A stretch of DNA of 64,000 bases. Source: Bacillus sp. NP157 (GTDB taxonomy: Bacteria > Pseudomonadota > Gammaproteobacteria > Xanthomonadales > Rhodanobacteraceae). The stretch covers positions 248,001 through 312,000 of the forward strand of contig CP076546.1 of assembly GCA_018889975.1 (NCBI GenBank), in the 5' to 3' direction. Position numbers and translations under genes: made by a program. Within the stretch, counting starts at the first letter, position 1. Each line of letters opens with the position of its first letter. The notes beneath the pieces were generated by a model. That model did no database searches, was not told the origin of the DNA, and saw nothing but the letters and a program-made list of their open reading frames with translations. Below, one piece after another: positions 15,694 to 20,353 of the stretch.

Positions 15694-16686
15694 ATGGCAG
15701 GCGAGACGACGCAGGGGACAAGGCGACGCAGGCGCGGATTCCGCGCTCACGTCGCCATCGTCTTCGGTTTACAGACGCTGGTGGTGCTCATCGCTTCGGT
15801 GATGACGGCCTATAACGTCGCGCCCCTCGGCGCGGCGCTGGCGATCATGCTCTGTTCGGGCGGACTGGCCTGGCTGGCGGTTTCGCGTGCGTGGCTGCCG
15901 ATCGCCGCGCTGGCCAAGCTGCTGAATGGTTGGGACCCGGACCACCCGGACATGGCTGGCCTGGCGGCCGAGGGCGACAAGCGCTCGGACGGCGATGTCG
16001 CGTCGTTGATTCGTGGGTTGCATGGCTTGGCCACGCGTATCGAAGGTTTCGGCGAGCGCGAGCGCAACTTCACCCGCGACGCCAGCCATGAGCTGCGTAG
16101 TCCGTTGACCGTGATCAAGATGTCGTCGGACATGCTTGCCGACGAAATGGACATGTCCGAGTTCGGCCACCGTTCGCTGGAGCGGATCCGTCGTTCGACG
16201 CGCGAGCTCGAGTCGTTGGTCGAGGCCTTCCTGATCCTTTCGCGAGAGTCGGACCAGGGCCTGGCCGAAGAAGACTTCATCGTAAACAAGGTGCTTCGCC
16301 AGGAAGTGGACTACGCGCGCGAGTTGATCGCGGGTCGTCCGGTCGAGTTGATCCTCGACGAGCCGGCATCGTTCGCCCTGCATGCCTCGCCGCGGGTGTT
16401 CGCGGTGTTGTGCGGACAGTTGATCCGCCACGCGTTGCAGCAGACCGACCAGGGCACCATCGTCGTGACGGTGATGCCCGGCAGCGTAAGCGTGATCAAC
16501 CCGGCGGTCGACGTGCCGGAGCCGGGCAGCCGGCGGCATGCGGCGGTCGACCGGCATGGCTTCGACCTGGCGATCGCACGGCGCTTGTCCGACCGCTTCC
16601 AGTGGCCGCTCGAGTTGCGCGCACTCCCCGGCGCATCCCGCGTCGCCAGCGTACGCTTCCCCAACCCCCAACCCATCGAAGCCTGA
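15694..16686 (+). CDS. Sensor histidine kinase with degenerate ATP-binding domain
   Basis: The 330-aa kinase has two transmembrane segments (about residues 19-40 and 45-68) with almost no periplasmic loop. The dimerisation domain carries phosphoacceptor His132 (DASHELRSPLTVIK). The catalytic domain is unusual: at the N-box the Mg-coordinating Asn is replaced by His246 (QLIRHALQQT), a DxGxG box is not recognisable, and the later glycine box survives only as HGFDLAIARRL. It may act mainly as a phosphatase or depend on another kinase. It lies 25 bp after its response regulator. A REP sequence begins 29 bp after its stop. Confidence 0.85.
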   Translation: MAGETTQGTRRRRRGFRAHVAIVFGLQTLVVLIASVMTAYNVAPLGAALAIMLCSGGLAWLAVSRAWLPIAALAKLLNGWDPDHPDMAGLAAEGDKRSDGDVASLIRGLHGLATRIEGFGERERNFTRDASHELRSPLTVIKMSSDMLADEMDMSEFGHRSLERIRRSTRELESLVEAFLILSRESDQGLAEEDFIVNKVLRQEVDYARELIAGRPVELILDEPASFALHASPRVFAVLCGQLIRHALQQTDQGTIVVTVMPGSVSVINPAVDVPEPGSRRHAAVDRHGFDLAIARRLSDRFQWPLELRALPGASRVASVRFPNPQPIEA

Positions 16687-16773: not shown

Positions 16774-17274
16774 TTATTTAAACAACGCCTCGATACGCCC
16801 CGCCGTCAACGCCCCACTAACGGCCTTCCGCGACCCATCCGCATAAACCACCAGCGTCCGCGGCGTCTCCCCGCCCCATGTCGGGTCGAGCAGGAAATTG
16901 ATCCGCTCCGGCGTCGCATCCGCATAGGCGCGCGAGGGCACGTCGTCCAGCTTCGCCCGCTTCAGCCGCGCCTCGAGCGCCTGTACCTGCGATGCCGGAT
17001 CGGTGGCGACGAACACAAGCTCGACACCACCATGCGTGCGCTGGTAATCGCGCAGCGCGGCGAGGTTCTGCTCGCAATAAGCGCAATCGAGCGACCACAG
17101 GGCCAGGATCCTCGCCCCCTTCGCCGGCGGCGCGACCAGCGCCTTTGCGTCGGCCGGCGCCAGCGGCACCGGCGCGGCAGCGAATGCGGGCGAGGCAAAC
17201 AGAGGCACGGCTGCCGCCAGGGCCACGCCCACGCAGGCCAGCCTGATCGTCGCCGTGCGCGGCCAGCGGCGCAT
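16774..17274 (-). CDS. Exported thioredoxin-like (TlpA/Sco-type) protein
   Basis: The ATG at 17274 is chosen because it overlaps the upstream gene's stop as TGATG and gives a signal peptide of about 33 residues. The 166-aa protein has a thioredoxin-like fold with redox Cys64 and Cys67 (LDCAYCEQN) and a cis-Pro region (GGETPRTLVVY). The expected role is thiol-disulfide exchange in the periplasm. It is the last gene of the regB-regA-propeller operon, which suggests a redox or metal-related task. The exact substrate is unknown. Confidence 0.8.
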   Translation of the reverse strand: MRRWPRTATIRLACVGVALAAAVPLFASPAFAAAPVPLAPADAKALVAPPAKGARILALWSLDCAYCEQNLAALRDYQRTHGGVELVFVATDPASQVQALEARLKRAKLDDVPSRAYADATPERINFLLDPTWGGETPRTLVVYADGSRKAVSGALTAGRIEALFK

Positions 17275-18452
17275 CACTGCAACGCTTCCGTCGGCACCAG
17301 CCGGAACGTACCGCCAGGATTCCATGCCACGAAGGCGCGGTGATCGAGCAACACGAGCCTGGGCCAGCCCGATGGACCGTCAGTGTGGGCAATGCTGCGC
17401 GGATCCGAGAACGTCAGGCCACCGTCGGTGGACTGGCGAAGCATCAGCTCCAGGCCCTTGTCGGTCATCTGGTGCCAGGCGATCCAGACCTGCTTGCCGT
17501 CGACCGCGAGGTCGGCATGCGAGGCGCCATTACCGGCCACGGTGAACGCATGCTGGGGCGGCTTGCCCGGCGCCAGCTGGCCGTACGTGATCGTCGGCTT
17601 GCCATCGCCGGCGCTGAACCACACCGCATGGCGGACGCCCGTGCCATCGATGGCAAGCGACGGGCCGTGGTGCGGGCAGCCTTCGATGTGCCACTGCGTG
17701 AACGTGGCGCGCTGCACGTCGGGCGTGCCGCCGACGGGCAGGGTGGCGTAGGCGTGGTCGCGGATATTGTCGCCGTAGATCGCGCGGAAGAAGGCGTCGA
17801 TGCTGCCGTCCGGCGCACGGGACAACGCAATGCGGCAGCACTCGCAGCTCTGGTCGGTGATCTTGCGCTCCGCGGCGAAGGTCGCGCCACGATCGGTCGA
17901 CCAGCTGTAGTACGTGGCGGCGCCGAGGTAGGCCTTGTGGGCCTTGGTCGCGGCCTCGAGGTCGCGTTTGTCGATCCACGCAACGAGGATATTGCCCTTG
18001 CCGTCGACCGCCATCGAATCGAAGCGATGGGTGATCTCGGCGCGATCGGCATGCACGGTCTTCGGTGCGTCGAAGTGCGCGCCGTGGTCGAGCGAGCGCG
18101 AGAAGCGCACGAAGCCGGTCCACGGCGCCTTCCGCGGCTGCGACCAAGATACGTACAGCTCGCCCTTCGGGCCCAGCGCGATCTTCGGCCGGTTTTCGCC
18201 TTCCGCGTAGATCGGCTCGCCGGTGGGATTGACGATGGTGGAGAGCGCGAACTCGCGGCCCATGTCGTCGGAACGACGCACGCGCACATGCTCACCGATC
18301 GTGTCGACCACCCAGAGATGACCGCTGGCATCGATGGCGGCGTCGAAGCCGAGCGGTGCTTCGTGGCCCATCGCCATGCCGTGCATGTCGTCGGCGAGGG
18401 CGACGGCCGGCGCCAGGCAGGCCAGCCAGGCGAGTGCGTGCAGGCGCTTCAT
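17274..18452 (-). CDS. Exported sialidase-like beta-propeller protein with Met/His and Cys motifs
   Basis: The 392-aa protein starts at an ATG that shares one base with the regA stop (TGATG). A signal peptide (residues 1-20) is followed by a Met/His cluster, DDMHGMAMGHE, at residues 21-31. Repeated Asp-box-like blades follow (for example SWSTDRGATF and RQSTDGGLTF), as in sialidase/BNR propellers. Cys203, Cys205 and Cys206 form a CECC cluster. True sialidase catalytic residues cannot be confirmed. The Met/His and Cys clusters suggest metal binding, perhaps copper, but that is inference. The frame upstream of the chosen start is antisense-like and was excluded. Confidence 0.75.
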   Translation of the reverse strand: MKRLHALAWLACLAPAVALADDMHGMAMGHEAPLGFDAAIDASGHLWVVDTIGEHVRVRRSDDMGREFALSTIVNPTGEPIYAEGENRPKIALGPKGELYVSWSQPRKAPWTGFVRFSRSLDHGAHFDAPKTVHADRAEITHRFDSMAVDGKGNILVAWIDKRDLEAATKAHKAYLGAATYYSWSTDRGATFAAERKITDQSCECCRIALSRAPDGSIDAFFRAIYGDNIRDHAYATLPVGGTPDVQRATFTQWHIEGCPHHGPSLAIDGTGVRHAVWFSAGDGKPTITYGQLAPGKPPQHAFTVAGNGASHADLAVDGKQVWIAWHQMTDKGLELMLRQSTDGGLTFSDPRSIAHTDGPSGWPRLVLLDHRAFVAWNPGGTFRLVPTEALQ

Positions 18453-19033
18453 CAGGTTTCGTCCGGGCGTTCGCGTACGGGATGCTTGCTGAGCTTGCGC
18501 TGCAGCGTGCGGCGATGCATGCCGAGCCGGCGCGCGGTCTCGGAGATATTGCCTTCGCATTCGGTGAGCACGCGCTGGATGTGTTCCCACTCGAGGCGGC
18601 GCAACGGCAGCGGCGCGTCCGGTGCGTCGAGGAAATCGTCGGCATCGGCGGGGCCGGCGTCGCCATCCAGCAACGCGCGGACCACGGCGTCGGCGTCGAC
18701 CGGCTTGGCGAGGTAGTCGTGCGCACCGCGCTTGATCGCCTCGACCGCCGTGGCGATCGACGCATAGCCGGTCAGCAGCAACACCCGCATGTCGGGCACC
18801 AGCGACTGCAGCTCGGGGATCAGGCGCAGGCCGTTCTCGTCGCCGAGCTTCAGGTCGAGCACGCAATAACGCGGCTGATGGCGGCGGGTGAGGGCGCGCG
18901 CATCGTCGGCGTTGTCGGCAGTGATCACTTCGAACCCGCGCGAACCCAGCGCGCGGCCGAGCACGCGTGCGAACGTCGCGTCGTCATCGACGATCAGCAG
19001 GGGGCGGCCGGTGGGCGGGGCAAGATCGTTCAT
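18452..19033 (-). CDS. regA: Response regulator, RegA/PrrA/ActR family
   Basis: The 193-aa protein has a receiver domain with acidic residues in IVDDD (14-18), phosphoacceptor Asp60 (YCVLDLKLGDENG) and a conserved Lys in AKPVD. A short linker leads to a Fis-type helix-turn-helix (NISETARRLGMHRRTLQRKL). This one-receiver plus Fis layout without an AAA+ domain is that of RegA/PrrA, which control respiratory and redox genes. Its start overlaps the regB stop by 4 bp (ATGA), so it is translationally coupled to its kinase. Confidence 0.9.
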   Translation of the reverse strand: MNDLAPPTGRPLLIVDDDATFARVLGRALGSRGFEVITADNADDARALTRRHQPRYCVLDLKLGDENGLRLIPELQSLVPDMRVLLLTGYASIATAVEAIKRGAHDYLAKPVDADAVVRALLDGDAGPADADDFLDAPDAPLPLRRLEWEHIQRVLTECEGNISETARRLGMHRRTLQRKLSKHPVRERPDET

Positions 19034-20310
19034 GTGTGGTCTCCGATGACCGAGAGGGGCAGGCGCAGGCGCATCTGTGCGCCGTGGCCGGTATTGCTGG
19101 CAGCGAGTTCACCGTCGAGGCGTTCGGCCGTGGCTTCGGCCAGGGCCAGGCCGATGCCCAGGCCCGTCGCCTTCTGCGACAGGCCGAGGGTACCGAGTTC
19201 GTCGGCTTCGTCGAAGCCGGGGCCTTCGTCGGTCACCGTGAGCACGAGCCAGGGGCCTTCGACGCGAATGTCGAAGCCCACGTAGGCGCTGCCGTTCAAC
19301 GAAGACGCTTCGACGGCGTTGTTCAACAGGTTGATCAGGGCATGGCGCAGGCCGGCGGGGGAGCGCAGGGCGAGACGCTCGGCGCCGGGTTCCACGCTCA
19401 ATGCGACGTCGGCCTCGGGACGCAGCAGCTGGAAACGCTCCATGCAGACATGGATGAACTGGGCGACGGTGAGTCGCTCCGGCTCCTGGGAAAGCTGGGC
19501 CTGGCCGAACGCGACCATCTCGCGCAGGATCGTGCGGCAACGCTCCACCTGGCCGTCGAGCAGGTCGAGGTCGTCACCCAGTGCGTTGTCGCCCGCGTGT
19601 TCGCGGCGAATCTCCGGCAGCAGCGTACGCATGGTCGACAGCGGGGTGTTGAGTTCGTGCGCGGCACCGGCGGCCTGTGTCGCGATGGCCAGGATGCCTT
19701 CGTCGCGCAAGGCACGCTCGCGCACGCGCTGCACTTCGCCCTGTTGGGTGCGGATGGCCTTGGCCAGGTTGCTGATGAACACGCCGAGCAGGATCGCCAT
19801 GATGACGAAGTTCACGCCCATGCCGGCGACGTACAGGTCGAAATCCAGGCTGGTGCTTCCCAGCGTCGGAAGCGGCAGGTGGTAAGGCACCAGCAGTACG
19901 TAGGCCACGCCGGTGAGGATGGCGACGAGGGACACGCCGACGATCGACAGCGCGGCCGCGGACAGCGCGATGGGCACCAGCAGCAGGGTGACGAAGGGAT
20001 TGGAGGCGCCACCGGTGAAGTAGAGCAGGTAGCCGAGCACCAGCGTATCGGCCGCGATATGGACGACGGCCTCGCCTTCGCTGATCTTCCAGGGCATGCC
20101 CAGGCGGAACGATGCCGCCGCGGCGAACACCGCCAGCGTGCCGACACCGACCATCAGCGGCAGCAGCGGCACGTCGAGCTTCAGCAGCGTGACGCAGGAC
20201 AGGATGGCGATGCTCTGCCCGGCGATGGCGCACAGGCGCAGCCAGGCCAGGGTGCGTGCCAGGACGAACGGACCGGAGCGTGATGAAGGGGTGTGGAGGT
20301 GGTCGCTCAT
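19030..20310 (-). CDS. regB: Redox-sensing histidine kinase, RegB/PrrB family
   Basis: The 426-aa kinase has six predicted transmembrane segments in the first 185 residues. The motif GGASNPF at 100-106 corresponds to the quinone-sensing loop of RegB. The H-box is AAGAAHELNTPLSTM with His218, and Cys258 in VERCR sits where RegB has its redox-active cysteine. The catalytic domain has LLNNAVEAS, DEGPGF and GLGIGLALAE, so it looks functional. It heads an operon with regA, the propeller gene and the thioredoxin-like gene, all overlapping. Confidence 0.92.
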   Translation of the reverse strand: MSDHLHTPSSRSGPFVLARTLAWLRLCAIAGQSIAILSCVTLLKLDVPLLPLMVGVGTLAVFAAAASFRLGMPWKISEGEAVVHIAADTLVLGYLLYFTGGASNPFVTLLLVPIALSAAALSIVGVSLVAILTGVAYVLLVPYHLPLPTLGSTSLDFDLYVAGMGVNFVIMAILLGVFISNLAKAIRTQQGEVQRVRERALRDEGILAIATQAAGAAHELNTPLSTMRTLLPEIRREHAGDNALGDDLDLLDGQVERCRTILREMVAFGQAQLSQEPERLTVAQFIHVCMERFQLLRPEADVALSVEPGAERLALRSPAGLRHALINLLNNAVEASSLNGSAYVGFDIRVEGPWLVLTVTDEGPGFDEADELGTLGLSQKATGLGIGLALAEATAERLDGELAASNTGHGAQMRLRLPLSVIGDHT

Positions 20311-20324
20311 GGTCTCTTCAAGGC

Positions 20325-20353
20325 AAAGGGCCGCCCTTGCGGGGCGGCCCTTG
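20325..20353 (-). terminator. Hairpin between the POT symporter and regB
   Basis: The arms AAGGGCCGCCC and GGGCGGCCCTT form a strong stem around a short loop. It lies 7 bp after the symporter stop codon on the minus strand and 15 bp before the regB start. The T-run after the stem is weak (TTTGCCTT). Confidence 0.6.

What the first reader, a model, noticed from the sequence alone, without database searches (positions are those of the whole stretch)
16774..20310. RegB/RegA operon carrying a Met/His- and Cys-rich propeller and a thioredoxin-like protein
Four genes overlap by 1-4 bases (ATGA, TGATG, TGATG), so they are translated as a unit. The kinase has the quinone-loop motif and a redox-type Cys. 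The third gene is an exported beta-propeller with DDMHGMAMGHE after the signal peptide and a CECC cluster. The fourth is an exported CxxC thioredoxin-like protein. A redox sensor joined to a putative metal-binding propeller and a thiol reductase suggests a maturation or sensing module, possibly for copper in respiratory oxidases. I do not know this combination as a described system.
Basis: partly seen in the sequence, partly recalled or inferred. Interest (0 to 1): 0.72.

Follow-up and report, generated by a model that had tools for sequence, protein, structure and literature searches.

The report
Copper-linked propeller behind a redox sensor
Two exported proteins encoded directly behind a bacterial redox sensor, one of them of a family that databases call a sialidase, are probably helpers for taking up copper for respiration.

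Summary
The four genes are there and overlap as stated. The window is Luteibacter. The first two genes are a RegB/RegA-type pair; the last two are an exported sialidase-fold propeller and a thioredoxin-like protein with CxxC. Comparison shows a context that the window lacks. In 68 of 69 non-Luteibacter loci a TonB-dependent receptor gene lies upstream of the propeller; in 75 of 84 loci the thioredoxin-like gene follows it. Of 54 loci outside the family, 20 also carry a CruR-type DUF2946 copper sensor or a PCuAC copper chaperone. Remote relatives lie near copper genes in all 11 plasmid regions that I fetched, but not in four remote relatives within the family. Four cysteines are invariant in 21 of 21 representatives. 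Within Rhodanobacteraceae 39 of 44 propellers follow RegA, and 2 more lie next to a paralogous pair. Luteibacter lacks the receptor at this spot but keeps a CruR-headed relative elsewhere. Best reading: a copper-acquisition helper pair for cuproenzyme (oxidase) maturation under redox control. Copper binding and mechanism are inferred; no structure could be predicted.

The parts
19030..20310 (-). RegB-type sensor histidine kinase, 426 aa
   Evidence: HisKA and HATPase_c; best NCBIfam hit NF033792 (207.5 bits, below the cut-off of 350)
19993..20013 (-). GGASNPF, quinone-type motif (residues 100-106; role recalled)
   Evidence: GGxxNPF is in 19 of the 20 RegB-like rows listed (L054 and L116 are one genome; missing in L076). 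Of 21 further Luteibacter rows 11 show it; 10 of these loci are cut off inside the gene
19540..19542 (-). Cys257 in VERCRTIL, position of the redox Cys of RegB (role recalled)
   Evidence: a like motif in 17 of the 20 rows listed, not in L132, L133 and L076
18452..19033 (-). RegA-type response regulator, 193 aa, receiver plus Fis-type HTH
   Evidence: best NCBIfam hit NF033791 (198.5 bits, below the cut-off of 250)
17274..18452 (-). Exported CxCC propeller, 392 aa (sialidase fold, not a sialidase)
18360..18392 (-). Met/His-rich tail DDMHGMAMGHE after the signal peptide (residues 21-31)
17835..17846 (-). CECC, residues 203-206, part of the invariant four-Cys set
17676..17678 (-). Cys259 in GCPHHGP, fourth invariant Cys
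16774..17274 (-). Exported thioredoxin-like (TlpA-like) protein, 166 aa
17074..17085 (-). CAYC active-site-type motif (residues 64-67)
   Evidence: both Cys conserved in 76 of 76
20326..20352 (.). GC-rich inverted repeat between the upstream peptide-transporter gene and the kinase gene; possible terminator
   Evidence: read from the sequence; not called by the pattern scan

Best explanation
The propeller and the thioredoxin-like protein are the periplasmic helper pair of a TonB-dependent copper-acquisition module. The receptor brings copper, probably chelated, into the periplasm. The propeller takes it up on its invariant Cys cluster (CxCC and C259) with His and Arg residues around it. The thioredoxin-like protein keeps these thiols reduced so that Cu(I) can be passed on to PCuAC and Sco chaperones for heme-copper oxidases. 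In Rhodanobacteraceae the module was placed under, or next to, RegB/RegA, which reads the redox state of the respiratory chain, so that failing oxidases would call for more copper. In Luteibacter the receptor gene is missing from this spot, leaving a RegB-RegA-propeller-thioredoxin operon. A related receptor behind a CruR-type gene elsewhere in the genome may serve it. Shown: gene order, conservation and associations. Inferred: copper binding, electron flow, delivery to oxidases, control by RegA.
For: Receptor upstream in 68 of 69 non-Luteibacter loci. Thioredoxin-like gene directly downstream in 75 of 84 loci, with CxxC in 76 of 76 sequences counting the window's. DUF2946 or PCuAC in 20 of 54 loci outside the family; Pfam confirms representatives. 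The 16 DUF2946 proteins aligned all carry CxxC and RAPP, the two CruR motifs (PMC9426467, passages). A neighbour census has ExbB, ExbD, TonB, DUF2946 and PCuAC on top. Of 7 chromosomal places from a phylum-wide sample, 6 have a PCuAC or DUF2946 gene. Copper genes in 11 of 11 fetched plasmid regions with remote relatives. Four Cys invariant in 85 of 85 and 21 of 21. RegBA linkage in 39 of 44, plus two paralogous pairs in other arrangements and a divergent pair in L076. The Luteibacter genome has a related receptor (about 41% identical) just behind a DUF2946 gene, two PCuAC and two Sco genes.
Against: No metal-binding, expression or mutant data exist here. No structure model could be made, so it is not known whether the four Cys meet in one site. 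The receptors fall into two subfamilies; of three receptors compared with solved structures, the best matches are a heme receptor (PhuR), PQQ receptors (YncD/PqqU) and a colicin I receptor, and the copper importer CrtA (9RVQ) is matched only weakly and by one of them. 34 of 54 loci outside the family show neither DUF2946 nor PCuAC (some contigs are short). Two of 12 Luteibacter genomes lack the pair but keep the receptor relative. Four remote relatives within the family (L128-L131) share CxCC but no copper family turned up in the 10 neighbour ORFs scanned; L128 has a thioredoxin, a MIP channel and a low-molecular-weight phosphatase/arsenate-reductase-type gene nearby. The wider family also lies in copper-resistance operons, so its role may be metal handling in general.
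Confidence: 0.6

Rival explanations
1. The propeller is an enzyme or binding protein for the organic part of an imported copper chelate. Its invariant Arg residues hold carboxylates, and the four Cys form structural disulfides that the thioredoxin-like protein shuffles.
For: Invariant R163, R223, R231 and W159, W254, W278 beside the Cys. CrtA of Bordetella pertussis imports chelated copper, notably with carboxylate ligands (PMC12914433, abstract). The fold is that of sugar-cleaving enzymes.
Against: CxCC is an unusual disulfide pattern but a common soft-metal one (recalled). Relatives in copper-resistance operons would have no chelate to open.
Confidence: 0.22
2. The module handles another cargo such as heme, iron or PQQ, or another metal; copper neighbours are incidental.
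For: Best solved relatives of two receptors are PhuR and YncD/PqqU. Four remote relatives lack copper neighbours among the ORFs scanned.
Against: Copper-specific neighbours in betaproteobacteria, in 6 of 7 places of the phylum sample and in 11 of 11 fetched plasmid regions.
Confidence: 0.08
3. The link with RegBA is positional only. The pair is merely co-transcribed in Luteibacter where the receptor gene is missing, and RegA does not control it.
For: RegA-like genes occur in 132 of 147 genomes, the strong propeller in 44. Outside the family the pair of regulators is near in only 1 of 54 loci.
Against: Linkage recurs with different RegBA-like pairs and in different orders (L132, L133, L076). 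Regulator and propeller genes stay within 5 bases of each other or overlap in the 11 Luteibacter loci L031-L041.
Confidence: 0.3
4. An exported sialidase that acts on sugars.
For: Database names 'sialidase family protein' or 'exo-alpha-sialidase' for most remote relatives; BNR_2 domain and Asp-boxes.
Against: No FRIP-like motif in 84 of 84 proteins; no sugar family among the 25 families shown of the neighbour census.
Confidence: 0.02

Closest known systems
cruR-crtA(bfrG)-crpH copper-import operon of Bordetella pertussis (PMC9426467, PMC12914433, PMC13038864)
   Same: CruR-type DUF2946 head gene in part of the loci, a TonB-dependent receptor, links to PCuAC and ExbBD-TonB, role in copper for heme-copper oxidases. 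CruR-headed operons with AhpC_TSA genes are already reported (PMC9426467, passage); the thioredoxin-like genes may be among these
   Different: Propeller plus thioredoxin-like protein stand behind the receptor, where CrtA loci mostly have a PepSY_TM protein (CrpH); the receptors compared are only weakly like CrtA; no CruR at the window locus
pcuABCDE copper-starvation operon of Bradyrhizobium japonicum (recalled; mentioned in PMC12617631, passage; the original paper is not held)
   Same: Locus L153 has DUF2946, receptor, propeller, PCuAC, DUF1775 and CopCD in a row, close to the recalled make-up of pcuABCDE
   Different: I could not check whether pcuABCDE itself contains the propeller; no RegBA there as far as I know
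RegB/RegA (PrrBA, ActSR) redox two-component systems
   Same: Best family hits, GGxxNPF motif, H-box, Cys, receiver plus Fis-type HTH
   Different: Scores below the curated cut-offs; carries the two exported genes in the same gene row
TlpA/DsbE-type periplasmic thioredoxins
   Same: Signal peptide, CxxC, thioredoxin-like context; TlpA reduces the copper-binding Cys of oxidase subunit II (PMC7558416, passage)
   Different: Below the Pfam cut-off (AhpC-TSA 18.6 against 26 bits); partner of a propeller
Bacterial sialidases (GH33)
   Same: BNR/Asp-box propeller fold
   Different: No FRIP-like motif; invariant CxCC and CPxxG instead

Membership tests
RegB/RegA redox two-component family | Score above the NCBIfam equivalog cut-offs | tested here: not met
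   207.5 against 350 and 198.5 against 250 bits; still the best hits by far
RegB/RegA redox two-component family | Quinone motif GGxxNPF, H-box, redox Cys in the kinase; HTH near the end of the regulator | tested here: met
   (roles of the motifs recalled)
RegB/RegA redox two-component family | Redox-dependent phosphorylation and control of oxidases | not testable with these tools
   needs experiments
GH33 sialidase | Asp-boxes and BNR repeats | tested here: met
   3 or 4 boxes in 83 of 84 proteins; BNR_2 in 69 of 72
GH33 sialidase | FRIP-like arginine motif | tested here: not met
   0 of 84
CrtA copper-import operon | CrtA-type receptor | tested here: not met
   three receptors compared: CrtA structure 9RVQ is hit only by L090 (52.2 bits) and is not its best match
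CrtA copper-import operon | PepSY_TM gene behind the receptor (over 75% of loci in PMC12914433) | tested here: inconclusive
   not among the 25 families shown of 51; single cases not excluded
CruR-headed copper operon | DUF2946 protein with CxxC and RAPP at the head | tested here: not met
   For the window locus: the three DUF2946 genes found in the genome lie elsewhere. A DUF2946 gene is present in 19 of 54 related loci, with both motifs in 16 of 16 aligned
TonB-dependent receptor-propeller-thioredoxin module | Receptor gene next to the propeller | tested here: not met
   Absent at the Luteibacter loci; present upstream in 68 of 69 other loci
TlpA/DsbE thioredoxins | CxxC and export signal | tested here: met
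Periplasmic copper proteins | Binds copper | not testable with these tools
   only conservation and gene context are available

The most novel reading that the evidence does not exclude
A large family of exported proteins now called sialidases is a new class of periplasmic copper protein with an invariant four-cysteine site, used both in copper uptake and in copper resistance. In Rhodanobacteraceae RegB/RegA uses the redox state of the quinone pool as a gauge of copper supply to the oxidases and drives this protein with its own thiol reductant.
Probability: 0.37. Interest if true: 0.77.

Novelty: new variant of a known kind. Interest (0 to 1): 0.6.

Why it matters
How Gram-negative bacteria acquire copper for oxidases is poorly known. 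The comparison points to a widespread helper pair that is hidden under the name sialidase, gives a four-Cys signature by which to find it, and ties it to a redox regulator in one family. It makes a testable link between respiratory redox state and copper supply.

Tried and rejected
Supply of nitrous oxide reductase: NosZ is in 13 of 147 genomes and in 6 of the 44 with the propeller; no significant association (Fisher p 0.21), and none of the 12 Luteibacter genomes has it. Sialidase: rejected. Idea that Luteibacter lacks PepSY_TM proteins so that the pair replaces them: not supported, the genome has five PepSY_TM matches. Idea that the 42% receptor of Luteibacter is unrelated to copper: dropped once a DUF2946 gene was found just in front of it. 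Idea that the gene overlap itself is conserved: wrong. Structure prediction and fold search: not possible. Promoter and terminator scan: no informative site. Papers: searches listed no paper that I could recognise as describing the propeller with copper. I saw the outline with abstract, section 4 and passages of PMC12914433, and passages only of PMC9426467, PMC13038864, PMC12617631 and PMC7558416; the other papers only as listings.
Full report
What is there. Four minus-strand genes overlap by 4, 1 and 1 bases: a 426-aa kinase, a 193-aa regulator, a 392-aa exported propeller and a 166-aa exported thioredoxin-like protein. The nearest named relatives are Luteibacter. The kinase and regulator have RegB and RegA as best NCBIfam hits, below the curated cut-offs, with the expected motifs. 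The propeller has one match in the 4.9-Mb genome.

The family. In 147 Rhodanobacteraceae genomes the propeller is found in 49: 44 at 46% identity or more, and 5 only at 26-35%. The thioredoxin-like gene is found in 44, the same genomes, always directly behind the propeller, at most 155 bases away or overlapping. A RegA-like gene at E 1e-50 is in 132 of 147, so the regulators are core and the pair is accessory. In 39 of the 44 the RegA gene lies upstream on the same strand within 3.3 kb: directly in 10 Luteibacter and in G117, with a receptor of 69% identity or more to that of L042 between them in 25, and with a 2.5-3.0-kb gap holding weak receptor matches in G137, G083 and G042. Of the remaining five, G098 and G130 have a paralogous RegBA-like pair (39% and 51-53% identical) in the same gene row, in two different orders. 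For G035 and G050 none was found in the fetched stretch; for G136 only the distance to its RegA gene, 0.8 Mb, is known. Two of 12 Luteibacter genomes (G123, G143) lack the pair; there RegA is followed directly by a convergent kinase gene, 84% identical to the one that borders the pair in the window.

The missing receptor. In 68 of 69 non-Luteibacter loci from the genome collection (L042-L110) a TonB-dependent receptor gene lies within 3 kb upstream of the propeller, in most directly; L054 is the exception (Pfam for representatives). L054 falls with receptor-bearing Rhodanobacter loci in the propeller tree (support 98/88), so the simplest reading is at least two losses, one in Luteibacter and one here. 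The models were built from clusters of the same loci. The 80 loci are the best of 146 found with six peptide patterns, not a random sample. Luteibacter keeps a receptor about 41% identical to that of L042, as close as the receptor of Dechloromonas L069 is; all 12 genomes sampled have one. In the window's genome it starts about 125 bases behind a DUF2946 match.

Copper. Of 54 loci outside the family, 19 have a DUF2946 gene and 14 a PCuAC gene, 20 either; 23 have ExbB, ExbD or TonB genes (60 bits or more with models built). Sixteen DUF2946 proteins were aligned and all have the CxxC and RAPP motifs that make CruR a copper-responsive upstream regulator in Bordetella pertussis (PMC9426467, passages). 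A census of 120 same-strand neighbour ORFs under 620 aa, drawn from 44 of these 54 loci, gives ExbB 10, ExbD 9, TonB 9, DUF2946 5 and PCuAC 4 as the top families. I then built a profile of the wider family and searched a phylum-wide sample: 8 of 249 genomes had a match at E 1e-15, a lower bound since at most 7 candidates per genome were scored. All 7 places outside Rhodanobacteraceae were fetched. Among 45 neighbour ORFs were 6 receptors, 4 PCuAC and 4 DUF2946. By place: PCuAC in L147, L148, L149 and L153; DUF2946 in L149, L150, L152 and L153; L151 has a receptor but neither. L153 has DUF2946, receptor, propeller, PCuAC, DUF1775 and CopCD in a row.

Remote relatives. On plasmids, 63 records hold relatives of about 25% identity, mostly named sialidase. 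I fetched 11 regions, chosen by rank and taxonomic spread and not at random. All 11 carry a multicopper oxidase, copper oxidase, CopC or other copper gene within about 4.5 kb, in Alpha- and Gammaproteobacteria and in the Bacteroidota genus Runella. Five of them share one gene row (L136, L138, L140, L143, L146) and two another (L139, L144), so there are about six independent cases, and there is no control for the general density of copper genes on these plasmids. Against: four remote relatives on Rhodanobacteraceae chromosomes (L128-L131) also have CxCC, but no copper family turned up among 10 neighbour ORFs scanned; L128 has a thioredoxin and genes that recall arsenic resistance nearby.

Residues. 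C203, C205, C206 and C259 are invariant in 85 of 85 close relatives, one genome counted twice, and in 21 of 21 representatives of the wider family, with R163, R223, R231, W159, W254 and W278. H142, H233 and H275 are 99-100% in the close set; H142 is 18 of 21 in the wide one. The Met/His-rich tail is real as a trend but not conserved in position. No protein of 84 has a FRIP-like motif. The thioredoxin-like protein has CxxC in 76 of 76. It is absent directly downstream in 9 of 84 loci: four have a thioredoxin-like gene in front of the receptor instead, two contigs end within about 400 bases, and in three none was found.

How it most likely works. Copper enters through a TonB-dependent receptor; the propeller binds it on the Cys cluster; the thioredoxin-like protein reduces the thiols; copper goes on to PCuAC and Sco, of which the genome has two each. 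In CrtA operons a PepSY_TM protein, which its discoverers speculate to be a copper reductase, stands behind the receptor (PMC12914433, section 4; PMC13038864, passages); here the pair stands there. RegB/RegA control would match copper import to the state of the respiratory chain. The steps after gene order and conservation are inference.

Known and new. TonB-dependent copper import for oxidases, CruR and PCuAC are known, and AhpC_TSA genes in CruR-headed operons are reported (PMC9426467, passage). I found no paper on the propeller in this role; the library lacks most subscription papers, and the Bradyrhizobium pcuABCDE paper, which may include this gene, could not be read. I rate it as a new variant of a known kind.

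Noticed in passing
L111:1710-10348 (G000:C1:3682709-3691347): The CruR-headed receptor of Luteibacter lies beside outer-membrane efflux and MFS genes and is convergent with a RamC/LanC-type lanthipeptide synthetase gene; a lanthipeptide-type metallophore is a possibility.
   Followed up: no
window 15694-16686 (+): The convergent kinase gene next to the pair has a HisKA domain but no ATPase domain that Pfam recognises; the same holds for its relatives in L112 and L113.
   Followed up: no
L132 and L133: A second, paralogous RegBA-like pair lies in the receptor-propeller-thioredoxin gene row, in two different orders.
   Followed up: partly
L125:2196-5708 and L126:2427-3947: Two further DUF2946-headed loci of Luteibacter: one before another receptor gene and a DJ-1/PfpI-type gene, one before Sco and PCuAC genes.
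   Followed up: partly
L136-L146: Plasmid proteins mostly named sialidase share the CxCC signature and lie near copper genes, so the database name is probably wrong for the whole family.
   Followed up: partly
L128:4492-9752: A remote CxCC propeller in the same family of bacteria lies near a TlpA-like thioredoxin, a MIP channel, a low-molecular-weight phosphatase/arsenate-reductase-type gene and an HTH_20 regulator; it may point to another metal or metalloid.
   Followed up: partly
L062: A metagenome bin labelled Bordetella parapertussis carries the module with a receptor of the second subfamily; the label was not checked.
   Followed up: no
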